Origin: Cladocopium goreaui
Lineage: Eukaryota > Sar > Dinophyceae > Suessiales > Symbiodiniaceae
Assembly: GCA_947184155.2 (NCBI GenBank)
Contig: CAMXCT020001001.1
Span: 202,501-266,500 of the forward strand
DNA: 64,000 bases
Reading direction: 5' to 3'
Shown here: piece after piece, positions 238-60,639 of the stretch
Position numbering within the stretch: position 1 is the stretch's first letter
Layout of the letters: each line of letters begins with the position of its first letter
Notes under the pieces: generated by a model
What the model saw: only the letters and a program-made list of their open reading frames with translations
Told to the model about the DNA's origin: nothing
Database searches by the model: none
Position numbers and translations under genes: made by a program

Positions 238-43686
<43,449 letters not shown>

Positions 43687-44169: not shown

Positions 44170-44264
44170 CTTTCGCCGGCGGCGTCGGCGGCGCCTGCAG
44201 CCATGGCGGCTGCAAGTGGGTTTCACTTTGCATCGGAGGTGGTCACGGAAGGAAACTTGGATAA
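44170..44264 (+). CDS. MAT-like exon 1 with start codon
   Basis: A polypyrimidine run and CCCTATCAG (44161-44169) could be a trans-splice acceptor. After 33 bases comes GCCATGGCGG, a good start context at 44203. The peptide reads [18 protein letters not shown] and is cut as GATAA | GTTGCT. The join to exon 2 restores DKLCD. The family motif HPDK reads NLDK. Confidence 0.75.
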
Positions 44265-47200
44265 GTTGCTTGGCAGGAGATTGCTTCCGGAGTGTGTTGT
44301 GTCTATATGTGTCTATGCCATGTTATAATAAGACACAATCATTCCAGGTGCATCCAGTACTTATAATATCTGTTTTTTAGATATGTGTTTGGTTTAATCA
44401 GATGTTACTTGGGATAAATTTGATCACGACTTCATTGCGGTGTCACGAAGAACCTTGTGTCTTGACGGGGGTGCGGTCTGGTAAACAGGGCAGAAGCGCA
44501 ACATTTCAGATCAGTCGCATCATTGATGTAGCCAGATGTGAAAAATGGTGTGTGATGTAGTTTATGTATATATATATATATATTTATTTATTTATTTAAA
44601 GATAGATATATAGATATAGTTTGCATATAGCTATATGGCCTGATCATGGGATGCCAGCACTGGGGAAACTTTGGATGAGTTTCGTCCTCCATTTCTTGCC
44701 ATTGAAAGTGCCACGCAAGCGTCACAGTCGGGGAATTTGGGTGTCCCCATGGGCATAGTTTCGTGCAATTCATGTTTGTTGTGTTGATTGTTTCTGATGC
44801 ACCTGCGCGTCCCTGTTTTGGTTCCATGATTCATACCCATCATGGTTGGCTATAGCATCATTTTCGCTCATAGCGCTGCTGGAATCTGCTGGATATATGT
44901 CCAATGTCTTCCAGCTGCCCCTCATCTATGATTTTCTACCTTCCGCTGGGATACTTCCAGCCGTTCCCCACCTCATCAGTTCCAAGGCAACTCCTCATGA
45001 GGAAATATGATGTTTGAAGAAGGGACCATGTTCTGTGAAGGGACCCACAAGGTTGGCCATATGTAGCACTGTGTAGCGGGACTACGGTTGTACTGTAACA
45101 TCTTGAAGCCATCCTGTGGCCCTTTTTGGGCCACTCGACGTGCAAAACAAATGTGGGCACCCTCTGGCAGGGGGGAATCACCATGTTCAAAGGGAAAGTC
45201 AATGAGAGGGTTTCAACATTACCAAGCAATTTGATCATGTTTTATAAGTTTAGAAGATACAAACCATTCAGAGCAACCCCCCAAAACGATAGAAAGTAAA
45301 GTAACATTTTCCTAACATAGTAACAGTTTTTTCATTTTTTGGGATTGCTAAAATCTAATTACTTAGACTTAGGCCCTCCAAGCACACAAAAGTCCCAAGG
45401 CATACTGGCGAAAAATTACCTCAAAGAATCCAAGTACAGAGTCTAACTCTGTACTTGTGTAGCCATGAATTCCACATTCCCCACAGCTCCCAGTTTCGTT
45501 CCCAATTCCCCAGGGTCAGACGGGCCCCGTTGGGCCGTTGGGCATCCGTCCAGGCTCTGCGACCGAGTCTGTGAGGCGGTTCTGGAGGCCTTGCTGTCGC
45601 AGGATGTCGAGTCTCGGGCGCAGCTGGATGCCTGTGCCAAGCTGGGCATGGTGCGCAAAGGGCGGGTGGGTGATGTTTTCTGAGTTCTTTAAGTTTAGTT
45701 GATCATCTTCAACTATTGATACAACCCACTCATCTACCTTAGCACACCCCACTTTTGTCCATCTCCATTATTGAGACAAGCCCCTAGTTCCCGTAGTGAA
45801 AGTGGACTTATCAACTAACTTGGATATCGCCACCCGGCGTGGTGGTATGGAAGCCACCTGGAAACATTTTAACATATTTAGAAAGGGTTTTAGTTTAAGA
45901 TGGAGGTATAAACAATCATGATACTGTAGGGATTTAAGCTATCAACATCTAACAAGTAGTGGTAAGGAACCTACAACAATAGTTCACGTTTGACTGATGT
46001 TTTCTGGGCAAGCCAACTGAGTTTGAGAGAGATATATAGCCAGCTTCGAGAAGAAAAAAGCACTGGAGGGTATCCAAGATGGGGGCGTACCTTTTTTAAA
46101 AGATATGCAGTAAACTGAAGAATAGAAACCCTAAGGTCTTTAAGGTCTGTGAAATGGAGCATGAACTTGATCAAAGCTGTCTCATCAAGAGCGGCGTGGA
46201 AGATGATTATCCTATATATATTGGACACAATTTGTGCGGCAACGCAATGAATAATTCAAGATTTGACCCCCATAACGGATAGAGAACTTTTTTTTTAATC
46301 CTGTAATTGATAGAATATGGGATTTTCAAAAACACTGCCATTTTACAAACGTTCTTTGAAAATTCCATATTCTATGTACTCAGTGACGACGGTAATATAT
46401 GTATATATGCATATATATATATATATACACATTTATGTGGAATTTATGTATATATATATATATTATGTATATACCTATGTGTAATTTTGCAGCATAATAT
46501 GCGGTTAGAATAAAAGTGATGCAGCCCAGACTGGTGCCATGATGAGCAGTTGGGTTTACGGTCTCGCCCCTTGGATAGCCAGCCACCTCCGATTTGATCC
46601 AAGAAAAAGATGAAACAACTGGTTTAGATTAGAATTATCAGCTCATATGCAATGCAATTATCACATCTTACCACAATGTGTCCATTCAACTCATTCAACT
46701 GTCAGCTGATGACTTGGCTGCCAAATCCATCCCCACTTTCCTGGATTCACGTTCCCTTGATCAAAAATTATCAAGTGATACCTGGTAAACTAACATAGTA
46801 ACATAGCTATGGAAAGTCACTTTTTTTTCAAAATGGATCAAAATCAAGTTATACATGGTCCTTTTTAATAGCTATGGATGGCCAGAGGCCATTTTTGTCG
46901 CTATGTCATGCTCCTGGGTGAAGTGGTCAGCAAAGCCACCGTGCCTTACGAGTCGATCATGCGCGAAGCGGTGAGGGCAGCGGGCTACGACCATGAAGAC
47001 ATGGGAATGGACTGGAGGACCGTGAACGTTCCCATGCCGCACCTGGGGCACCCTGGGGCTGGGTGGCGGGATGGTGGGTATCCAAGATCCAAGCTGCTGG
47101 GGACGTTTTCTGGTACCAAAATGCAGCATTTTGGTCGGTACCTCAGATTCGTCATGTGGCTGTGCTTAATTGTGCTTATAGTTCTGGCAATGGAAAATGC

Positions 47201-48767
47201 CATGGAAACTGCGCCAAAATCGATGTTTATCGCTCGAAACGGATCCAAGTCTGCATGGGTGAATATTCGTTACCATTCCAAATACGGTGCCAGAAGGGAA
47301 ACTTTGTATTGACGGCAATCTGGGTGAGTGATGAATATGGTCCGCTGTGTCTTCGCAATAGGTGGATGAAAATGCCATTTCCCACCATATACACTAATAT
47401 ATCACTAATATATATATATAATATAGACTGTAGACTAATCCTTCACCATATACACTAATAATATATAATTATTATATATCACTCATCCTTCACCAGGACA
47501 GTCTTGTTCGCAAAAGGGCCATGTATTCATCCGTCCCATGTTGACATGGGGCTTTTACATCGGAGTGGGATGTGTGGCACTGGATCAACATGGCACCATG
47601 AACTCTGGTAAACGTATAAAAAACTACTATGGAAAATCACCATGTTCAATGGGAAAATCCACTATTTCTATGGTCATTTCCAATAGCTATGTTAGTTTAC
47701 CAGAGGGTAATCAAGTGTTAGCATTGGGGTATGATGTTAGCAAACTACAATGGCACAATCTAACAAGAGTTTTTTTGATGCCGACAATCACACCTCATGG
47801 TGCTCTTTTGGGCTTGTAATGTGGTTGTTCGTCATTTTTCCAATTTTCAATGGCCCAAAGTTTGGGTCTATCGACTGCATTTGTTGGGCATACTCATTTT
47901 ATACTGGTGGTTAAGTTGTTTTCCATCAAGTTAAGTTGATTTTTTTTGGGTGGTCCCTATTCCTGGACAAACCAACAACTATGGGTGTATACCAACGTGA
48001 CCACACTATTCCATTTGATCAAGCATGTTTATATCTTCTAAAATGCAGATGCATGTCCCAGGTTGTCCTAGCCGCACAAAATATTAAATATATATATACT
48101 TTAGTTTGTTGCTTTCAATGTGTCCCATACCAATAATCAATATTATATACCTTGTTGGTGTGAAACAACATAATTTCTTGTTAAATGTCATTTAAAGATG
48201 TTGATTGTCAATGGTACTGTTTCAATATCTGTTTACTGGCTACAAGTCATAGGACGCGTTAAATGTCCTATAGGTTGTTTTGGCTTGTTTTGTATGGCAT
48301 GTTCCACAGCTTGGCTACGTATAATACACCCAAACCAAATAGACCCAAATAAACGAATTGTATGATATGATGTGAAATAAACCACGTGGTTACGAAGGAC
48401 ATAATAGGATTCAATTTCATGTATCAGCCTGATATGTTGGACTAACATATTGTCCTAATATGATTGCACACCCGCGCCGGTATGATACCCATGTCACAGC
48501 TAGTAATTGATCACCTATGTAAAATCATATATCTAGTAATTTACCGTAATTTACCATATTATGAATGATATTATTGGCTGGTGCACTGTTAAGTGTCATT
48601 ACTGGCTGGTGCGCTGTTAAGTGTCATTACTGGCTGGTTAAATATCATCAAGATGTTGGTGATCCATATTGTTAATTATCATACTAGTGACTAGTGGTTG
48701 AGCACCACACACAAGCACACACATATACATACATACATACATCCATGCATACATACATACATACATG

Positions 48768-48800
<33 letters not shown>

Positions 48801-51524
48801 GCACATACATACATACTGTGTGCATATATATATACATATATATATATATCATATTATGTTTAGATATAGATCTTATGATTAGTGGTTAAATCTTCCCACG
48901 CGCCAATCGCTGGCCACTTGCGCCGAGATCATCGTGGCGCTGGAGGACCGCAGCGCGGAGTGGCACCGGGCGCTGCTGGGCGGCGCCGATCCCTCGCGGT
49001 CCTTGGGAGACGATCAGGTCACGTGTCGGGGGATCCTGCCATGGTGGGCCATGGGACGCGGAAAACCCATGGGGAAAACGGGAAAACCCATGGAATTCAT
49101 GGGGAAATGATCTACAAATGCTGGGTCCCGTTTGCAGGAGGGAAGCTGGTTAGTAATGGGTCAAAAAAACACATAAAAAAATCACTTACAGCATTTACAG
49201 CCTATAGTTACTAACCATTTAACAAATCCCATAGCCTATCTAAGTACGGGGGGTTCTTCACATGGTGTGTTTGGCCAGCCCCAAAAAGAAAAAAAAACAT
49301 CCGATTGAAATAGTGGCAGGGGGACTTTCTATTTTTTTGTGGGGGGACTATGTATGCAGATAAAGCAGTGGAATTGTTGGGTATATGGGTATACCCCGTG
49401 TTGAGATAAACCCGACACCATTTGAGACTTTATTTAAGGGTTGGTTGTTGGGGCCTAAACACTGTCTCAGCGAGTAATTATAGCGATAGTAGCCCAAGCT
49501 GGAAACCCATGTTCTGTAGAGAAAACACATGCACAAAAACAATCATCTATAAAAGACATCCTAAACGGGAAATGTAAATATATATATATATATACAAATA
49601 TATTGTATATATATAATTGTCGAGTTAGAAACTAAGACGTAAATAGCAGCTTTGTGATTTTGGACATGGACCAAAGTTCCGACTTGGGAAGATCCCGCAG
49701 TAGATCACGTTCAAGTACAACGTTTGGAGTTGGAAATCGGTTTCGAATAAATACATCATAAAACTTAATTACTTCACTTCGAATGATCCCCACCATGACA
49801 TCTATACATTTTCTTACAGGCAAATCTTCTGGCATTCTATCTGACATATCTATCTGGCATTCTATCTGGCATATCTTCTGGCATATCTTCTGGCATTCTA
49901 TCTGGCAAATCTTCTGGCATTCTATCTGGCATATCTTCCGGCATTCTATCTGACATTTTATCTGGCATATCTTCTGACATTTTTTCTGGCATTCTATCTG
50001 GCCTATCTTCTGACATTCTATCTGACATATCTTCTGACATTCTATCTGGCATATCTTCTGACATTCTGTCTGGCATATCTTTTGACATTCTTTCTGACAT
50101 TCTTTCTGGCATTCTATCTGGCATATCTTCTGACATTCTATCTGACATCTTTTCTTCCCGTTGAGGTCCGGCAGTGCCCACTGCGATCTGGAAGTCGCGG
50201 TTGAGATCCGGCAGTGCCCACTGCGATCTGGAAGTCGCGGTTGAGGTCCGGCAGTGCCCACTGGGATCTGGAGCTCGCGGTTGAGGTCCGGCAGTGCCCA
50301 CTGGGATCTGGAGCTCGCGGTTGAGGTCCGGCAGTGCCCACTGCGATCTGCAGCTCGCGGTTGAGGTCCGGCAGTGCCCACTGGGATCTGGAGCTCGCGG
50401 TGGAGGTCGGACGTGCCCACTGGGATCTGGACTGCGAGGAGGAGGAGGAGGACGAGGAGGAGGAGGATGCGGAGGCGGAGGAGGAGGAGAACAGCTCTGA
50501 TAAAATCTAACAACCCTCACCTGGCAGGTGGGGAATTAAGTAGTAAATAACCAAAGAATTACTTCAATTAGTGAGTTGAAGTTGAAGTGAACAATGAAGC
50601 ATTGGACTTGGAGATTTTTTTTGAGATCAGGAATCAGGAATCAGACTGGGTTTCAGCGGCACTCACTGTTTTTCTGAAGGTTTGAGGTTTTCATTGCATC
50701 ATCATGATGATGTTTTCCTTTCCCAATTCACATCATGCGCATCAGGAAATATCATGATGTAAAGATCATCAATGACAGCATCCTGGAGTTGTTTTCATTC
50801 AATTTATTAGGTGGGTTGCCATATAACTGGTCAGTCGCCCAAAAAATAAGGTATCCAAAACCTTATAGCCGCCCCAATCACTCTGAAAATTTTATGTTAC
50901 TACGTGTTACCACCAAACGGCTACAGTACCAAACCAGTACCAAGCCACTACCAAACCACCAAATTACATCATTGGTGAATTCCTTTGTTTACTCTGTTTG
51001 CTTCACGAAGTTTTGGTTCATCCCTTCCCTTTCATATTAAACATTTCCCCATAAAGTATGGGTTTTGCAATGGTTACATGGGTTTGTCTGAAAATAGCGT
51101 ACCTCTAAATCCATTGGATGATCATCATTTTCCCGATTTCCAATAATCATGTGGTGGTAAGACAGCATATTTTCAGACACACCCTTAAATGAAATCAGAT
51201 ATAATATCCATCCAGAGCTGATCATATCCAACAAAATCAGCCCTGTTGGATAGTAACCCACTTCTCCATACGCTGACCTCCCTGATCTTCGCCGCTTTAC
51301 TTCACAGGCCGTGCTGTGTGGCTACGCCACGGACGAAACGCTGCAGCTCCAGCCCTTGTCCCAGCAGCTGGCAGAACAGCTGGCGGCGCGGATGGATGCG
51401 AAGCTTGGCTCCGTGAAAGCCATCGGAAGGCCATGGCAAAGCACGGGGGGACCTCCATATGTATATATATATATATTATATATATGTATAGTATATATGT
51501 ATATATATATATGTATAGTATATG

Positions 51525-51555
<31 letters not shown>

Positions 51556-54500
51556 GTATATATATATATGTATACATATCTACAGTCAATGGGGTTACAA
51601 ACCAAAGGAAACAAACATTCATATAAAGGGAATCCCTAATTATAAACTATATTTTTTTATACTTTTTTAGGATTTTCCCTTGAACCAATCGATTGAAAGT
51701 AAATGAGCACTTGTTAGCATCTCTCCTCGCGAGTTTCTCTCTGTTTGTGCCATCACCAAAAAGTACCCTGCACCCCGTGAATGATGAGCTGGAAGGCCAG
51801 CCAAGGTCAGATGCGTTTATGTCAATTTAAGGTGGCAGTATACACTGTAATACACCCGACATTGATATGTCAAGCTTTTCCGGGCCATCACTCGAAGTGG
51901 CGAAAATATGTACCGATCTATAGGTGGCTCCCAGAAACCATCCAGCCCCCAAAGGGCACATCTCAGGTTGAGACTCGATGGCTCCCTGCCGTGGTTGCGT
52001 CCCGATGCACGGGCACAGGTCACGGTGAAGTACGTCACTTGGCAGCGGCGGTGTTTAGCGGAGAATGTGTGGGGTGGGAACGAAAGGACGTAATTAATCT
52101 AACCTGGCAACCCGAACCCATGGGAAATCCCTTTGGTCAGAGTAGACAGGTAGATGGGGGCAGTGGTTTTTCAAGATTTTAGGTATGATACGGTTGTCCT
52201 GGAGTGGGTAGGAGGTAGATATTTGTATGATCATGCATAGATAGATAGCTAGCTAGATAGATAAATAGATAGATTAGATAGAGACGTAGAGATGTAGAGA
52301 TATAGATATATAGAGATATAGAAATAAATAGGGATATAGACATATATACTAGAGGTATAGATATGTATATATATATATAGGTATACAGATATAGATAGGT
52401 AGATAGATAGACAGATAGATAGATAGATAGATAGAGAGATGGATATAAATATACAGTAGATATAAATATAAATAAATATATATATATAAATATAAACATA
52501 AATATAGAGAGAAATAAATATATAAATATAGATGTATAGATACATTTAAATATATATATATATATTATAGATATAATACTTTTATAGATATTTTTATACA
52601 GTTATTTATATAGATATTCAGATACATAGATATATAGATATTTTTAGATACGTATAAATATAAAGACGTGTGGATATGCATATATGTGTATATAAATATA
52701 GAGATATATTAGATATGCAGATATAGATGTAGATAGATAGAAAACTAGCTAGCTAGCTAGCTAGATGCAAACACACACATATGAATCATATGTGGGTATA
52801 TCCTTTCGTTTACCAGCTATGGTCGGTTTATGTTTGGTATAGGGGAAACTTTTTTTTTGCGGAAACTGGCCTTAGACCTGATTTGTGATTGAACACTGTC
52901 AAAGTGGAATGCATGGGGGTTTTACTGCAGATTCTCTTGGTTCCAGTTTTTTTTTTGTCTCATTTTGAGATTCCACCAGCTGGGTGTGTATGCAATTTTT
53001 TAGTTGATCAGATACCTTTTTTTTCCGATCGAAGCGTAACACAAATTCTTGACAGAACCATTCGATACCCATTCCTTGAACTTTGATGTCCCAGTTTCAA
53101 GGGTTTACTGACTATTTATCTCCGTTACCGTGTAAACCATTGCAATAGATGGATTTGGAACAGGTACCGGAACTTGGTTTACCGGGAATGAATTAATCCC
53201 ACGTTCACATTTATGGCAAAGCCACGAATATTCACCGACCCTTTGGGGATGATGGTTACAACCCATCAATGGTGATTATGAGGATAGTTTATCATTGGGT
53301 TTGCCACCTTCGCTCCTTCGCTTTGTTAACCGTTAACCTTACTATGATGAAACCTGTGGTCACTACTTGGAGGATCATCCAATCCCACTTAGTGGATAAT
53401 AACCCTGGTTAGTAAGTCCCCTAAGTGGGTTACCTTCTGGTAAACATACAAAAAACTATGGAAAATCACCATTTTAGTGGGTAAATCAACGGACTAAATT
53501 AACTCAATGGCAAATTTCAATAGCAAACTGTTAGTTTACCAGAGGGTATCCCATTTATTATAAATGGCTAAAAAACACCAGTTGCTAACCCGTGCAGTGG
53601 GATGATCTGAGGTAGCCGTTCCCAACTCGCCAGGTGTGAGTTCCATTGCCATCGTCTACGGCCACGCTGCAGATGTGAAACCTTCTGAGGCGGAACAGGA
53701 GCCGTGCTGGATACCCATGCCGTCCAAGTACCCTCTGGTAAACGTACAAAAAAGCGAACTGGAAAATCACCATCTTTAATCTTTAAATTTGGTAAATCAA
53801 CTACAAATGAAGTATTTTCAATAGTTTTGTTAAATTACCAGAGAGTACCTGGAAGATTGGGGTCATGTGCCCATTGTGACTTGGGACTTTTAACAAATCG
53901 TGTGCTTCGAGGGTCTACTCCCAAAGATTACTTAGATGCAATAGGAAGATCATCTTCCAGGCCCATTTTTTGTAGGTTCCATGTTGTTTTTTTTGGTGGG
54001 TGTACCAAAGAAACGCTGGCAAGGAACTATATCTATATCTCTATATATATATATGAGACATCCATACTTCACGTTCACAAAAAGAGACATGCAGCAAGCC
54101 CAAAAAATGTCGATTGATGATTGAATCGACGATATATTGTGTGTTTGCCACATTAATGTTTGATATTTTAATGGTAGGGATCCCACCCTGATGCCCTGGA
54201 AGTTGATGTCCTCAAGGTATGTTCAAAGGTCTGTGTGATCATGTTTCCCATTTTTTTGAAAACCCTGCTTCATTTTGAGATGAATTGGATAAAACTAATT
54301 CGAGAGAGTGAGAGAGAGAAAAAAACAAATAGCCTTGTCTTTGGACGGAAATCTTGACATCTACCCTGGCGAAAACTTAAAAAAAATATACCCTCTGGTA
54401 ATTTAACATAGCTATGGAAAATCACCATTTTCAATAGGTAAACCATCTATAAATCGGCCATTTTCCATGGCTATGTTAAATAACCAGATGGTATGTCAAA

Positions 54501-57500
54501 AGCCAACAGGATAGGCATAGGGAAAGCCTTCTGTCCATGGCCCCAGGACTTGCTGGAGAAGGTGGTGAGCCTCGATTTTTACGCAGGGGGATCCATGGGG
54601 TTTCCATCAATGGCGGTAGCCCTAGTTACCCTCTGGTAAACTAACATAGCTGTTGAAAATGACCATTTATAAGTGGATTTTCCCATTGAAAATGGTGATT
54701 TTCCATAGTTATGTTAAATTACCAGAGGGTAGCCCGAGTTATCATCCATTTGAGATTGGGACTTTCCATGAAATAAACCATCCATAAATGGAGGTAGCCC
54801 CATTTATGGAACCCCCCATATGGAAAAAACCATGAAAAAAACGAGACCATGTTGGAATAGGTTTTTGGTATATCAGCATACAGATGCATACAGTATGTTT
54901 ATCATCTATTTCCATGGGCCATATTTTCCAAAGGTTAAACAGCCAGAGAGAGCCTGAGGGGAATTTTTGACTTTGTACTGAATGCCCCCATGAAAACAAT
55001 GGTAGCAGCAATCTTTAGTGCATATCCCGTCAACAAAAATGACATGGAGTTTGAAACATGCAATTCCAAAGTATCTTGCTGGATTGCTGATGGCCTTTGA
55101 TGGGTTGTGCAGTGCCAAAAATAATCCCAATCTTTTGACTTACACACTGAGTTCAGATCAATGTCCCATTTCAAGAGATTAAAACTCATCTCAAGACTCG
55201 ATGGTGGTATTGACTGGTCGGGATTTTCCCCTCATAGTTTGGATGCTGTTCAACAATGGGACAGCCGTCACATCACCTGTCCTACTTGAAAAATCATCCC
55301 AGACAGTTAGTTGTTAGTAAAGCTGGTGATCACAAACCCCCTGTCCCCTAATTAGCTGAATTATCGCTTTTGCAACTTGGTGCCCCAGAGTTAATTACCA
55401 TATATCATATGAAACCATATTTAGCTAAGTGTAATTCAACCATGGTGTATGGTAAATACACGAGTTAATTAATTTATAAACCGATAAGTATACCTAGGGC
55501 ACCACATTCCAACTCACCAGCTCCTAAGTGGATCTAAATGAGTTGAATTCATCCAGTATAAACCATTTCTTCGCCCAACTTAGCTGCTAAGCTCCATTTC
55601 TCCATAAGTTTTCTCCAAGGAAAGTGGTGCTCCCCAGCCTTCCGGAGAGCGTCGCCTTCACCCCCCGCAGCGCTTGGCGTGCCGGCGCAAGTGCCTCGGG
55701 CGCCTCTGGACGGAGACACCTGGAGAGCTATGGTGGCTGGGCACCTGGGCGCGAAAGGGATGAGATCGCCAAGAAACATCGAGGTTTATTTATATCTGGA
55801 CAACCGATGGTTAACTTGGGGTTTCAAAAAGGACACATCTACAGTTGGATAGACATGATAAACCAACTTATAACGTTTTTGGCGCTGGAAATCCCTTGGC
55901 TTTGAGGATTATCACACTTAGTGACTGGTTGGTAGTTCGAGCTGAAGGCCTTCCTGCTTGACAAGCTATATAATTATATAGTTATATACAACATATAGTT
56001 ACTGTAATACAATATATACTTATATAAGAAGTCCTGTAATTAAGCGGATTATCCACAGCTATGGCAGATGTTAACAGTGTCTAGCCTTGGAAACTAATCA
56101 TTTCCACCATTTATAATGATACTAAATACCACCCCATCGAAACACTGGTTTAGTATTGGATCTATTCATGAATTGGGCCCCCAAGATTAACATACCAATT
56201 CATTACGGAATGGCTAGTGGCTATGTTAAGCCCGAACTTTGATAGCTAAAACCAAAAACAACTTTTCTTGGTTAACAAGCTCTTTCTTGTTGTTCAAACC
56301 GCCGTCCATGTGGTGCCCGGCAGTTCTAACGAACTGGTGCATGACCAGTGTAGTGAGGTTCTAAATTTTAAAATTCAGTGATAAATAGGATTTCTGATCG
56401 ACAGGGTTACTAATCCAATACTGCTGCAATGCTATTTGGATTCTAGCTATCCAATCAAATTCCAATAGATTTATGACAACTTAATCTGGTTGGTGGTCTG
56501 GAACATTTGGATTATGTTTTCATATATTGGGAATGTCATCATCCCAACTGACTTTCATATTTTTCAGAGGGGTTGAAACCACCAACCAGTATATAACAGT
56601 ATATATCATATGGATATTCCATTATATCGTGGATATATATCAGTGATATACTATAGTCTATAGTGATATACTTAACCATATATATGGATAGTACCCTCTG
56701 GTAAACTAACATAACTATGGAAAATCACCATGTTCAATGGGTAAATCCACTATAAATGGGCCATGTTCAATAGCTATGCAGCTATGTTAAATTATGATAG
56801 ACTAACAGTAATATATGATAGACTAACAGTAATATATTCATGTTGAGAGATGGCAACCGAGGCCCCTGGTTGCGCCTTCAGCGGCCGCGACGGCGGCAGC
56901 CTTTCGCGTTGTGGTGGGCTGGCGGCCGCATGGGCAGCGAAGAGCCTGGTGGCGGGGAAGTTCTGCAGAAGATGTGGCGAGACAGCGGACGTTGCTATTT
57001 TCGCCTCGAAAAATAGTGGTTCTTTACCATGAAATTTTAGGAAAATCACCAGGAAAAAGTGGATTTTGGTTTGAAACTATTTCTAAACATAACAACTTAA
57101 GTATACTGAAGTAGATTTTGATCGTAATTAATCATTTAAACCACAGCATTCTAGTTTTACTATAACCAAATTTGTGATTCTAAACAGAAGTTGTTTCTAT
57201 ATGTATTTTATCATCAAAGTGACTGGTCTAACCATGACAAAGTTAGTCGTTTTATCACACGTTGATTATGTTCATCATTTGTCTAGTTATTTTTCACGTC
57301 TTGAAACCATTCTAAATTGTCGTTTCCATTGGTTGATTCCCAATTCTTGCAAGCAACACCGGCATTCTTTCCGATTCAGAGTAGAGACCCCCAAACTCCC
57401 AAACCGTGTTTTTGTTGACAAAAAACATGGTTACCATCCAACACTTAAGTTTCTTTCCGCCAACAATATCTTGGAGAAGGCTGGGAATCAACCAGTGGGA

Positions 57501-58432
57501 AAAGGACGTTGAAAAAAAATTTAAAATTGGTGCCCAGTTTTTTTAGTTGATCATGGTTGATCTATGAAGCCATTATGAAACTGTGGTTGTTTTTGCCACC
57601 ATGAACTTAGTTGGAAGCCACCGCTTGGCCAGCCATAGCACTGGGGCATCACCTTGTAATAATGGCTGTATACAATATACAGCAGCAAAAGAATGGTTCG
57701 GACTCTATTTTCTAGGTTCCATGCTTGATTTGGGGAGTGTACCCCAGATATAACAAACAATTTGGCCAAAGCCCTAGTGGATTTGCAATATATAATCATT
57801 AATTGGGCCTTAAGCCGAAGAAAAGGGAAATACAAAACACGTTGTTGTAGCAGGCTGGTCATTTTGTACTGTCCAACTATAAAATGATCCACTTTTTTCC
57901 AATAAACGCGATGAACGACACAAATTCGCCACTTGTAGATGATTACTCATGTCCATCCCCCGTTCATACTAAACGCCCCCCTTATGATTATCATGGTTAC
58001 TGGTCCATAATGGTCCCAGATATGTGTACCCTATGGTAAGTACAGTTAAGCTATGGACAATCACCATTTTTACAGGTCAATCATGAATCATCTAGAAAGG
58101 GGCAATTTTCCATGTTAAATAAGCAGAGGGTGAATGACCCATGAAAGTTCCAATCCATATCTATCCCTCAGTTGATTTCCCTTCCCAAATATCATGGTAA
58201 TTTCTTCGCAAAAACCATCAAAAACTCATGGGCCTTCCCAGGGTGGGCCTTCCCAGGGCCGGCCTGGGCCATGAAGGGATTGAGGTCGCGTGCAGCTGCG
58301 CTACGTCGCCGGAGAAGCCCAGATCCAGGTTGACAGCTACGGCAGCGCAAGGAGCGACGCAGAGCTGGAGGAGTTGTCACCCGACACAGCAGAGGTGTGA
58401 CGATTGGATGGTTTCCATCGGTGATTTTAGGG

Positions 58433-58466
<34 letters not shown>

Positions 58467-60273
58467 GCGCTCTCTTTCGGACTCTTCACATACACATTAC
58501 ATATACACATTTATGAACATATCCATATGTATGTATATATATATATATACACATATGCTTATATTTATTTAATTATAATTATATATATGTGGTTATTTAT
58601 ATATATATACATATGTGGTGTGCGTTTATATTTATGGCATTTATTGTATGTGTACATATATATATATATATAGTATATATATATATATTATATAATAATG
58701 TATAAATATATATATATATACAGGGATGATCACTGCTTGAAGTGAAGTCAGGATTGTTTGTTAGTAACACTCGCAGTGTCCCCTCAGTGGTTCAAAGCCG
58801 GTTGCCAATGATGAAATTCCATGATCATCCAAGCGGAGGATACCAGGAATGGACCTGGCGAAATTGGGTCTTTAAGCCATCCTCACGAGGGAATGTTTTA
58901 TTTAAAAAGTTCACATCCCACTGAACATTATATCAATCATGGTGCAGAAGAGGTCTGATTGGGATTGTGATTGTACAGCTGCATGATGGTTAAATTCAAG
59001 TTACTCTTATATTAATCAATTCAATGGAGTGCAATCGGGTTTCCTGGCAAATGGATTGAAATAAGGTGATTTCGGGTCTTTGTATGTTATACAAATACAT
59101 ATATATATACACATATATATGTTATAATAGACATAATTATATATACACAGTATAATTGCATACATTTGCATACTGCGTACTTGCAAATGTATTGGGTTAT
59201 GGCAATATGACTAGTTATTGACTGCAGCCCGAAGCAACTCCCAGGCACCCCATGGTGTCAATCAACGTATTTCAAAGATTTCAATCAACTAGAGGTCGTT
59301 TCAAGGCAGCGGAAATACTTCGTATAGGATTCAAACACACGGATTGATCATTAAAGCAGCACAGAATAGATTCAGGATGGCGGTTTCGCCCCTGCCAACT
59401 TCTTCGTTTTCCACTTCCGGCTGTCACGTATGGCTGGAAGACTGCCAGACCCCTGACTGACACACTTGGTGGCCAGTCAGCCATCAATTCAAACTTTCGT
59501 CTACTCTTCCACGGAAAAAAATGGAATCCCTTGAAATCTTCCCCCTCATCAGGATTCCTAGTTGGAAAGCACCCAGCTTTCCATTCCATGGCGAACATCG
59601 CTACCTAAGGCTGCTGCGGCATTTCGATTTCCGGCCACAAGCCTTGCAGAAAGAGCTGCAGTTGAATGCCTCAATGAAGGCCAAAGAGAAACCATGGGAG
59701 AAGCCAAAGGCGTGGTCCTGGCGGAAGAACCAAGGGCGGTTTCAGTCACCGGATTGAAAAAATCAGCGGGGCGCCATGAGTCATCACCATGTTGAATAGG
59801 TATGTGTAAATGATTGAAGTAAATGGGTCATGGCCGCCATAGCAAATTGTAACAAGTCACCAGAGAGTACTTGGAGGATCATCCCACAAATCGAACCTGG
59901 TCGGAGGTAGTTAGTAAGTTCCCTATGATCCTATGTGCCTATGTGCGTTATCTCAATTTTAGACTGGTTATAACATATTACTGGTTGGTGGTTTGGAACA
60001 TTTTAATTACATTTTATTTTTTCCATATATTGGGAACCATATACAGTCAGTAGTCCCATTTGACTATATAATCTTTTTCAGAGGGGTTGAAGCCACCAAC
60101 CAGTAACTATGGTCCTATGGTCATTAATCACTGATTGAGTGGGGTCCTCCACGTAGCCATTTCCTTCGTTGCCGCCGATGCTTGCCCCCGGTTACAGGTG
60201 CTCCAGTGACGGGCGCTGGGCGAAAAAAAATGGCCATTTGACGCGACCCTTTCTGGGCAACCTCACCAGAAAT
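44203..60273 (+). CDS. S-adenosylmethionine synthetase (MAT)-like protein, probable pseudoenzyme
   Basis: MAT makes S-adenosylmethionine from methionine and ATP. Fourteen islands, listed separately, follow the family order from SE.VTEG..DKLCD to the C-terminal GH(F/L) region, giving about 370 residues (usual 380-400). Most joins keep phase using GT-AG or GC-AG. Strongly conserved text remains: [42 protein letters not shown]. Key positions differ from the E. coli enzyme (residue numbers from memory): HPDK is NLDK (His14 lost), PDGK is PDAR (Lys165), GDAGLTGRK is SASGASGRR (Asp238, Lys245), GKD is GRD (Lys265), KVDRS is SLSRC (Lys269, Asp271). With no stop in any island this suggests a divergent, possibly inactive paralogue rather than fresh decay. 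The 3' end after 60273 is not identified. Confidence 0.8.
45554..45650 (+). CDS. MAT-like exon 2
   Basis: CGTCCAG | [36 protein letters not shown] | GTGCGC. It matches the family's LCDQVSDAVLDA.L.QD...R segment. A longer frame from 45487 is open but does not fit the family. Confidence 0.8.
46779..46890. mobile_element. Decayed introner family 1 copy beside MAT-like exon 3
   Basis: TACCTGGTAAACTAACATAG at the left, CTTTTTAATAGCTATGGATGGCCAGAGG at the right. Its CCAG may act as the acceptor. Confidence 0.55.
46886..47027 (+). CDS. MAT-like exon 3
   Basis: The family part begins [13 protein letters not shown] at 46905, then [15 protein letters not shown], and ends DWRTVN | GTTCCC. The acceptor is unresolved: CCAG at 46884 comes from a decayed family 1 element and would add about six residues. 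Confidence 0.8.
47602..47709. mobile_element. Introner family 1 copy
   Basis: ACTCTGGTAAACGTATAAAAA ... ATGTTAGTTTACCAGAGGGTA, in MAT-like intron 3. The rest of this intron (47028-48927) holds TA and CATA tracts only. Confidence 0.85.
48573..48642. repeat. 28-bp tandem repeat, about 2.5 units
   Basis: Unit ATTACTGGCTGGTGCGCTGTTAAGTGTC, in MAT-like intron 3. Confidence 0.85.
48928..49017 (+). CDS. MAT-like exon 4, phase 0-0
   Basis: GCGCCGAG | [30 protein letters not shown] | GTCACG. It corresponds to the (V/I)ALEQQS...GAGDQ segment. The conserved GAGDQ reads LGDDQ. Confidence 0.8.
49846..50152. repeat. 15-bp minisatellite
   Basis: Repeats of the type TCTATCTGGCATATCTTC / TCTGACATTC. The 15-base unit keeps minus-strand frames open as an M-P/S-D/E-R/D pentapeptide. 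In MAT-like intron 4. Confidence 0.85.
50161..50420. repeat. 40-bp GC-rich minisatellite, six to seven units
   Basis: The unit holds GGTCCGGCAGTGCCCACTG and ATCTGGAGCTCGCGG. Units start at 50161, 50201, 50241, 50281, 50321 and 50361, with a decayed last copy. A (GAG)n tract follows to about 50490. Confidence 0.95.
51308..51402 (+). CDS. MAT-like exon 5
   Basis: CTTCACAG | [31 protein letters not shown] | GC donor (AA | GCTTGG). CGYATDET is the most conserved signature in the window. Phase 0 after exon 4. Confidence 0.85.
51967..52033 (+). CDS. MAT-like exon 6
   Basis: CATCTCAG | [22 protein letters not shown] | GTCACT. It matches the family's G..PWLRPDGK.QVTVEY. The catalytic lysine position is arginine. 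Confidence 0.85.
52200..52760. repeat. (TAGA)/(TA) microsatellite region
   Basis: About 550 bases of GATA, TATA and AGATAG repeats in MAT-like intron 6. The remainder to 53430 shows no exon. Confidence 0.9.
53431..53548. mobile_element. Introner family 1 copy
   Basis: TACCTTCTGGTAAACATACAA ... CTGTTAGTTTACCAGAGGGTA. Confidence 0.85.
53612..53665 (+). CDS. MAT-like exon 7
   Basis: GATCTGAG | [18 protein letters not shown] | GCTGCA (GC donor). It aligns with the family's AVP.RVHTVVISTQH. The frame stays open to the element at 53727, so the true 3' end is open to doubt. Confidence 0.65.
53727..53849. mobile_element. Introner family 1 copy with direct repeats
   Basis: AGTACC | CTCTGGTAAACGTAC ... 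TTAAATTACCAGAG | AGTACC. The flanking AGTACC copies are a candidate target-site duplication. Confidence 0.8.
54178..54216 (+). CDS. MAT-like exon 8 (13 codons)
   Basis: AATGGTAG | [13 protein letters not shown] | GTATGT. It aligns with the loop and helix following ISTQH. Confidence 0.65.
54389..54493. mobile_element. Introner family 1 copy (near consensus)
   Basis: TACCCTCTGGTAATTTAACAT ... GTTAAATAACCAGATGGTA. Confidence 0.9.
54547..54568 (+). CDS. MAT-like microexon 9 (about 22 bases)
   Basis: GCCCCAG | DLLEKVV | GC donor (A | GCCTCG), or an 18-base form ending before GTGAGC. It matches the family's DLLEKVIKPV. Confidence 0.6.
54627..54731. mobile_element. Introner family 1 copy (near consensus)
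   Basis: TACCCTCTGGTAAACTAACAT ... TGTTAAATTACCAGAGGGTA. Confidence 0.9.
55625..55740 (+). CDS. MAT-like exon 10
   Basis: AAGGAAAG | [38 protein letters not shown] | GCACCT (GC donor). It aligns with P.GRFV.GGP.GDAGLTGRKIIVDTYGGW. The P-loop-like block is strongly altered. Confidence 0.75.
55742..56690. other. Intron 10, no exon seen
   Basis: It holds a family 2 introner (56486-56589) and AT-rich DNA. No other coding island is supported. Confidence 0.6.
56486..56589. mobile_element. Introner family 2 copy (near consensus)
   Basis: CTGGTTGGTGGTCTGGAACA ... TTTTCAGAGGGGTTGAAACCACCAACCAG. Confidence 0.9.
56692..56795. mobile_element. Introner family 1 copy, right end broken
   Basis: TACCCTCTGGTAAACTAACAT at the left. 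The right end reads TATGTTAAATTATGATAG and lacks CCAGAGGG. Confidence 0.8.
56862..56973 (+). CDS. MAT-like exon 11
   Basis: CAACCGAG | [37 protein letters not shown] | GTGGCG. It matches GGGAFSGKD..KVDRSAAYAARWVAKSLV..GLCRR. Two catalytic lysines and an aspartate are replaced. Confidence 0.85.
57160..57512 (+). other. Intronic open frame of 112 codons
   Basis: From ATT/ATG near 57174 to TGA 57512, without GC bias, between MAT-like exons 11 and 12. No family is recognised and it is probably chance. From 57513 to 58026 nothing is seen. Confidence 0.2.
58027..58131. mobile_element. Introner family 1 copy (diverged)
   Basis: TACCCTATGGTAAGTACAG ... CCATGTTAAATAAGCAGAGGG. Confidence 0.7.
58285..58396 (+). 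CDS. MAT-like exon 12
   Basis: GGGATTGAG | [36 protein letters not shown] | GTGACG. Joining exon 11 restores CRRCRVQ. It matches VQVSYAIGV...V.TYGT..S..EL. Confidence 0.8.
58435..58740. repeat. (CT)n then (TA)n microsatellites
   Basis: TCTCTC runs followed by TA, with a short GTGTG patch. Confidence 0.9.
59610..59657 (+). CDS. MAT-like exon 13
   Basis: CTACCTAAG | [15 protein letters not shown] | GC donor (CT | GCAGTT). Joining exon 12 gives [12 protein letters not shown], matching EIVKKNFDFRPG. Confidence 0.75.
59981..60103. mobile_element. Introner family 2 copy
   Basis: CTGGTTGGTGGTTTGGAACA ... TTTTTCAGAGGGGTTGAAGCCACCAACCAG. Confidence 0.9.
60198..60273 (+). CDS. MAT-like exon 14 (C-terminal region)
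   Basis: CGGTTACAG | [18 protein letters not shown] | [14 protein letters not shown] aligns with the family's (R/K)TAAYGHFGR. The last exon, with the usual TWE text, was not found. Confidence 0.55.
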
Positions 60274-60639
60274 GTGCCACACACACATACACACATCATA
60301 CATATATATATATGTAATACATACGCACGTATATTTATAATTTATATATGCACATATGATCACATATGTAGGGGGAAAACCTATATACAGAAAATCAATT
60401 TCTTGAAGGGACAATCTGGAAACCTTTGGGGATTTGTTCCGTTTGCCAATCCACTGAAAATGACAGTTAATTCTTGGCATATTATTACGGAAGGAACATC
60501 ATCCCCCAAAATTAGGGAATATCCACTGAAAGTTAGGGGAATCATCCCGAAATCGACTTATTGATACTTATTGTTGATGTTGGAAATACGGTCGTTTCCC
60601 ATTCTTGTTTGCAAAGAATCCCTAGGGACTCCAAGAATT

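What the first reader, a model, noticed from the sequence alone, without database searches (positions are those of the whole stretch)
44203..60273. Near-complete SAM synthetase paralogue with its catalytic residues rewritten
Fourteen open islands keep the family's order and fold signatures, yet at least six catalytic or metal-site positions differ: NLDK for HPDK, PDAR for [13 protein letters not shown] for GDAGLTGRK, GRD for GKD, SLSRC for KVDRS. With no stop in any island, selection on a non-catalytic or regulatory role is plausible.
Basis: partly seen in the sequence, partly recalled or inferred. Interest (0 to 1): 0.85.

Follow-up and report, generated by a model that had tools for sequence, protein, structure and literature searches.

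The report
Probably inactive dinoflagellate SAM-synthetase look-alike
A dinoflagellate nuclear genome carries a full-length, many-exon gene for a relative of the enzyme that makes SAM; most residues needed for catalysis are changed but the predicted coding sequence has no stop codon, so it may be a protein with a new, non-catalytic job.

Summary
A spliced model of 14 exons (44203-60286, + strand, 390 codons, no stop) matches SAM synthetase (MAT) along nearly its whole length; all three Pfam domains pass cut-off and the best solved-structure match is human MAT2A (E 2e-58). An automatic spliced alignment scores 286, against at most 43 in 24 controls. Of 15 residues named as catalytic or ligand-contacting in human MAT2A, 4 or 5 remain.

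New here: the genome's intact resident MATs (a tandem array, an intron-rich gene) carry three MATX-like insertions that the window gene lacks. It is 41% identical to human MAT2A, 33% to the resident enzyme; grouping with the resident copies is rejected by AU (p=0.017) but not by KH or SH (0.052, 0.055).

Best reading: a constrained pseudoenzyme derived from ordinary MAT. Against: no transcript, no dN/dS, one genome, uncertain exons, and catalytic positions are not lost preferentially (5 of 13 kept versus 62 of 131 other invariant columns, p=0.58). A recently dead gene remains possible.

The parts
44203..44251 (+). Exon 1, [17 protein letters not shown] (alternative end 44264, adding NLD and the first two bases of K)
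   Evidence: start ATG chosen by eye
45514..45654 (+). Exon 2, contains [22 protein letters not shown]...AKLGMV (alternative start 45554 joined to NLDK; alternative end 45633)
46888..47027 (+). Exon 3, ...[40 protein letters not shown]; keeps Glu70
48928..49017 (+). Exon 4, [30 protein letters not shown]; Gln113 to Arg, Ser114 kept; the only acceptor not AG|G
51308..51399 (+). Exon 5, [31 protein letters not shown]
51967..52033 (+). Exon 6, [22 protein letters not shown]; Lys181 to Arg
53612..53689 (+). Exon 7, [26 protein letters not shown] (aligner's end 53698)
54178..54216 (+). Exon 8, [13 protein letters not shown]; uncertain, skipped by the aligner
   Evidence: only
54547..54557 (+). Exon 9, microexon of 11 bases (20 bases in the aligner's path); uncertain
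55620..55740 (+). Exon 10, [40 protein letters not shown]; Phe250 to Trp, Asp258 lost, Lys265 to Arg, Arg264 kept (aligner's end 55752)
56862..56973 (+). Exon 11, [38 protein letters not shown]; Lys285 to Arg, Lys289 to Ser, Asp291 to Ser
58285..58372 (+). Exon 12, [29 protein letters not shown] (aligner's end 58375)
59610..59663 (+). Exon 13, [18 protein letters not shown] (aligner's end 59664)
60198..60286 (+). Exon 14, [16 protein letters not shown]..., weak match to the family's C-terminal end; 3' limit arbitrary, no stop reached in the model
   Evidence: only

Best explanation
A resident nuclear dinoflagellate gene of about 12-14 exons encodes a nearly full-length protein of the SAM-synthetase family that cannot run the normal reaction. 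Shown: homology along the length, predicted exons without stops, change of most named catalytic residues, intact canonical copies elsewhere in the genome, and absence of the three insertions that the resident copies carry. Inferred: it descends from ordinary eukaryotic MAT; a MATX-type enzyme makes SAM in this organism; freed from catalysis, the protein diverged fast while still constrained as a coding sequence, and acts as a non-catalytic partner or sensor (for example binding MATX, or methionine, ATP or SAM without turnover). A role that supplies half of a mixed-dimer active site is unlikely, because residues of both halves are changed (Gln113 on one subunit, Asp258 from the partner).
For: Spliced model with 390 codons and 0 stops; automatic alignment 286 versus at most 43.25 in 24 controls, 0 stops when stops are cheap; three Pfam domains over cut-off; human MAT2A 1.9e-58; 10 or 11 of 15 named residues changed; GC3 0.728 as in the resident gene although introns are at 0.35-0.44; zero stops bounds purely neutral change to 0.066-0.120 per site against a branch of 1.49; no resident-type insertions, 41.1% identity to human MAT2A versus 32.6% to the resident enzyme; AU 0.017 against grouping with the resident copies.
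Against: No transcript, no orthologue, no dN/dS. Exon ends and exons 7-9 and 14 uncertain. The hand-joined exons were chosen partly because they are open, so the stop and GC3 arguments are weaker than they look. Catalytic positions are not lost preferentially (5 of 13 versus 62 of 131, p=0.58). KH 0.052 and SH 0.055 do not reject grouping with the resident copies; 7 taxa and one very long branch. The MATX label of the resident copies rests on papers, as I held no named MATX sequence.
Confidence: 0.52

Rival explanations
1. A gene that diverged as a coding sequence and died recently: a decaying pseudogene that has not yet gained stop codons.
For: Many family-invariant positions lost (69 of 131 unlisted); Lys-poor, Arg-rich drift with GC1 and GC2 raised to 0.675 and 0.503 versus 0.556 and 0.423 in the resident gene; odd microexon and uncertain joins in exons 7-9 and 14.
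Against: No stop in the path even when stops are cheap; GC3 not drifted toward intron GC; neutral change limited to about 0.07-0.12 per site by the absence of stops.
Confidence: 0.3
2. A neofunctionalised enzyme: the MAT fold now runs a different reaction, or weak phosphatase chemistry, with other residues.
For: Glu23, Glu70, Ser114 and Arg264 are kept, and Asp134 and Asp179 positions are Asp; several Lys are Arg, so some positive charge stays.
Against: Asp258 and Asp291 are lost, Lys289 is Ser, and no clustered new motif is visible in the alignment.
Confidence: 0.12
3. A fast-evolving duplicate of the resident MATX-type genes rather than a displaced ordinary MAT (a rival about origin, compatible with any of the functional readings).
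For: KH 0.052 and SH 0.055 do not reject it; long branch 1.49 makes placement unsafe; two of 13 introns lie within one column of an intron of the intron-rich resident gene.
Against: Lacks all three insertions; lowest identity but one, 32.6%; AU 0.017; 0 of 13 introns coincide exactly with the 18 placed in the intron-rich gene.
Confidence: 0.15
4. Chance islands strung together by eye.
For: Islands were first chosen by eye and three donor types make joins easy.
Against: Automatic score 286 versus at most 43.25 in 24 controls; three Pfam domains in order.
Confidence: 0.01

Closest known systems
Ordinary eukaryotic methionine adenosyltransferase, MAT (human MAT2A; Arabidopsis SAM synthase)
   Same: Same three domains in order and nearly gapless alignment; 41.1% and 39.6% identity over 270 shared columns; no MATX-type insertions.
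   Different: Only 4 or 5 of 15 named active-site residues kept; metK score 195.4 below the 309.4 cut-off.
MATX, the divergent paralogue reported from dinoflagellates, euglenids, haptophytes and diatoms (PMC3923989, passages and section 5)
   Same: Same family; the resident copies in this genome look like this type.
   Different: Window gene lacks the three insertions seen in the resident copies and in Crypthecodinium AdoMetS (PMC2148060), and is catalytically altered, whereas Euglena MATX is reported active.
Prozymes: catalytically dead paralogues of AdoMetDC and deoxyhypusine synthase in trypanosomatids (PMC5201418, PMC6221367, PMC3663545; abstracts in the listing)
   Same: Inactive paralogue beside an active enzyme; would work like one if it binds MATX.
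   Different: Different enzyme families; no binding partner or activation shown here.
MAT2B, regulatory subunit of human MAT II (recalled; mentioned in PMC6850014 and PMC3793261 passages)
   Same: A non-catalytic regulator of MAT.
   Different: MAT2B is not a MAT homologue (recalled), whereas this protein is.

Membership tests
MAT / SAM synthetase family by descent | Three domains S-AdoMet_synt N, M and C in order | tested here: met
   67.2, 71.7 and 63.1 bits against cut-offs 33.1, 29 and 25
Functional MAT (EC 2.5.1.6) | Catalytic and ligand residues (15 named for human MAT2A in PMC6850014) | tested here: not met
   5 of 15 kept on the HPSR path, 4 of 15 on the NLDK path; alignment of Ser247 to Asp258 is the least certain part
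Functional MAT (EC 2.5.1.6) | NCBIfam metK equivalog cut-off 309.4 bits | tested here: not met
   195.4 bits
Functional MAT (EC 2.5.1.6) | Forms SAM from methionine and ATP | not testable with these tools
   Needs expression and assay
MATX | Family-specific insertions (four reported in PMC3923989; three of 8, 19 and 10 residues in Crypthecodinium AdoMetS, PMC2148060) | tested here: not met
   The three insertions present in the resident copies are absent in the window protein; the fourth was not identified
MATX | Groups with MATX in a tree | tested here: inconclusive
   AU 0.017 rejects, KH 0.052 and SH 0.055 do not; 7 taxa; resident copies used as MATX
Pseudoenzyme under selection | Intact reading frame with catalytic residues lost | tested here: met
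   390 codons, 0 stops in the model; 0 stops in the automatic path; residues
Pseudoenzyme under selection | Expressed, with dN/dS below 1 | not testable with these tools
   No RNA data; no close homologue found in own genome, viral contigs or prokaryote contigs (one bacterial MetK only)

The most novel reading that the evidence does not exclude
In a dinoflagellate whose SAM synthesis rests on MATX, the displaced ordinary MAT gene was not lost but became a lineage-specific non-catalytic MAT-family protein, such as a methionine or SAM sensor or an allosteric partner of MATX; it would be the first pseudoenzyme of this family that I know of.
Probability: 0.28. Interest if true: 0.75.

Novelty: new variant of a known kind. 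Interest (0 to 1): 0.46.

Why it matters
MAT is among the most conserved enzymes, and PMC3923989 reports that organisms mostly carry either MAT or MATX. A surviving but inactive ordinary MAT beside a working MATX would show one fate of the replaced paralogue and give a test case for reuse of a housekeeping enzyme. Two searches for a MAT pseudoenzyme in print (open-access PMC only, listings and starts of abstracts seen; 20 of 50 papers listed, 4 of 4) showed none; subscription journals are not covered.

Tried and rejected
NLDK as pure intron read-through was my first view (note, model). The automatic aligner found a gapless GT-AG join that uses it, so I reversed that and keep HPSR as the rival. 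The residue counts use the HPSR alignment; I did not repeat the Fisher test on the NLDK alignment.

Preferential loss of catalytic residues: tested, not supported.

Duplication of the genome's own MAT: disfavoured by insertions and tree, not excluded. A first tree test used an uninformative constraint and an untrimmed bacterial sequence; one search replaces it.

Close relatives: none in viral contigs; genome contigs gave 17 pattern matches, 1 of them encoding a relative, an ordinary bacterial MetK.

A frame-B reading of exon 10 that looked by eye like a possible frameshift beside the GASGRR frame was set aside, as it needs about 20 extra bases; not tested statistically. A first version of the aligner (linear gaps) gave partly spurious exons with score 300.8 and was replaced. 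A first tblastn on C3501 printed nothing because of a wrong option; one search repeats it.
Full report
What is there. The window is G000:C1001:202501-266500 of a 1.17-Gb genome in 6202 contigs. It is a dinoflagellate: the 21-base spliced-leader sequence (recalled) has 172 exact matches, the reversed control none. Homology to SAM synthetase starts at 44203 and runs to about 60286 on the + strand. By hand I joined 14 exons into 390 codons without a stop. Donors are GT (6), GC (3) and GA (4); 12 of 13 acceptors are AG followed by G. That fits the genome: in the intron-rich canonical gene on C3501 I read by eye AG|G at 9 of 9 acceptors with the same three donor types, and the aligner gave 10 of 11 there. 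A table in PMC7789003 (passage) has two columns with 52% and 74% GC/GA-AG introns; the passage does not name the columns, which I take to be Symbiodiniaceae.

More than chance. I wrote a spliced aligner that scores codons against a profile of four canonical MATs, window excluded. At intron cost 18 it scores 286 half-bits, against 41.5 on the reverse strand, 39.0-40.5 on three other stretches of the window and 31.5-43.25 on 20 dinucleotide shuffles. With intron costs 14 and 24 it scores 329 and 231; controls were run only at 18. As a positive control, with a profile that leaves out the resident enzyme, it recovers the first part of the intron-rich gene on C3501 (score 446, 12 exons, the last probably spurious). 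15 of the 22 internal boundaries of its cost-14 path on the window equal mine. Making stops cheap leaves 0 stops in the path. The spliced protein passes the Pfam cut-offs for all three MAT domains, scores 195.4 bits on metK, below its cut-off of 309.4, and matches 45 distinct solved-structure sequences, best human MAT2A at 1.9e-58.

Active site. PMC6850014 (passages) names Glu23, His29, Glu70, Gln113, Ser114, Lys181, Ser247, Arg249, Phe250, Asp258, Arg264, Lys265, Lys285, Lys289 and Asp291 in human MAT2A. In the window Glu23, Glu70, Ser114 and Arg264 are kept; His29 is His on the HPSR path and Asn on the NLDK path; the other ten are changed. The alignment between Ser247 and Asp258 has a gap and is the least certain part. 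The join at HPDK has two candidates: a gapless GT-AG|G intron giving [12 protein letters not shown] (at intron cost 14, at 16), or a GA-AG|G intron giving TEG, nine extra residues and [10 protein letters not shown]. At costs 18 and 24 the aligner drops exon 1 and starts at GHPSR. Neither restores HPDK.

Not specially the active site. Of columns invariant in the canonical set, 5 of 13 listed and 62 of 131 unlisted are kept (Fisher p=0.58, HPSR alignment). The protein has 11 Lys and 32 Arg in 390 residues, the resident enzyme 34 and 14 in 390, so Lys-to-Arg changes are partly a general drift. An active enzyme would be expected to keep the listed set, so loss of normal catalysis stands as an inference, but 'rewritten catalytic residues' overstates it.

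Gene or pseudogene. Zero stops in 390 codons bounds purely neutral change to 0.066-0.120 substitutions per site (95%, stops alone; 0.024-0.047 if frameshifting indels at 5-10% of substitutions are counted), while the tree branch is 1.49 per site. The calculation uses the hand-joined model, whose exons were chosen partly because they are open; no long part of the family's length is missing, which limits that bias. GC3 is 0.728, equal to the resident gene, while introns are at 0.35-0.44; a long-dead gene would be expected to drift toward the introns. So most of the divergence probably happened under coding constraint. Recent death cannot be excluded. Exons 7-9 (a microexon of 11-20 bases) and exon 14 are weak points.

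Which MAT. Other MATs found in the genome are a tandem array on C1404 (9 N-domain matches; the copy read has HPDK, PDGK, GDAGLTGRK, GKD and KVDRS), an intron-rich gene on C3501 with matching pieces on C2720 and C1713, and a bacterial gene on C1. The protein search of the own genome lists only C1001, C1404 and C1; it scores only the best candidates. The array and the intron-rich gene carry insertions of about 8, 17-19 and 9-10 residues, as described for Crypthecodinium AdoMetS (8, 19 and 10; PMC2148060, passages and section 5). Dinoflagellates are listed as MATX bearers in PMC3923989 (passages and section 5). That the resident copies are MATX is inferred from these two papers. The window protein lacks all three insertions. 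Over 270 shared columns it is 41.1% identical to human MAT2A, 39.6% to Arabidopsis, 32.6% to the resident enzyme and 31.1% to the bacterial one; the canonical ones are 56-70% identical among themselves. Placing it with the resident copies is rejected by AU (0.017) but not by KH (0.052) or SH (0.055); placement with human, plant or bacteria is not rejected (7 taxa). None of its 13 introns coincides exactly with the 18 that I placed in the intron-rich gene; two lie within one column, and several of those positions are approximate.

How it most likely works. It probably folds like a MAT subunit and no longer makes SAM. [quoted passage not shown] Gln113 and Asp258 are both changed here, so a mixed dimer with MATX would not gain a clean hybrid site, and an allosteric or ligand-sensing role is more likely than half-site complementation. 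This step is inference.

Limits. No RNA, no orthologue, a small tree, hand-chosen exon ends. The literature was searched in open-access PMC only.

Noticed in passing
G000:C1404:68000-117500 (L031-L035): Tandem array of canonical MAT copies: 9 N-domain matches. In the C-domain search three of its matches carry in-frame stops (79865 and 111669 with one TGA and one TAG each, 99163 with one TAG) and some are partial.
   Followed up: partly
G000:C3501:29099-48900 with L027-L030, L036, L037: An intron-rich canonical MAT gene of the resident type; its pieces occur twice on C3501 in opposite orientations and again on C2720 and C1713, either duplicates or alternative assemblies.
   Followed up: partly
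G000:C1:2141525-2142640 (L001): An intronless bacterial-type MAT on a contig of over 2 Mb, probably a bacterial contig within the assembly.
   Followed up: no
window 49837-50535: Repetitive, partly GC-rich stretch inside intron 4, open on the minus strand as 232 residues of repeats such as SGHCRTSTA and [11 protein letters not shown].
   Followed up: no
window introns, for example about 53430-53560, 54390-54490, 54630-54730, 56690-56800: Recurrent element seen by eye with ends like TACCCTCTGGTAA and TTACCAGAGGGTA around ATGGAAAATCACCAT; looks like a short mobile element in introns.
   Followed up: no
window 5237-5734: Two GC-rich open islands that look ankyrin-like by eye; below the Pfam cut-off (Ank 13.7 of 21.1 bits in the second, none in the first).
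   Followed up: partly
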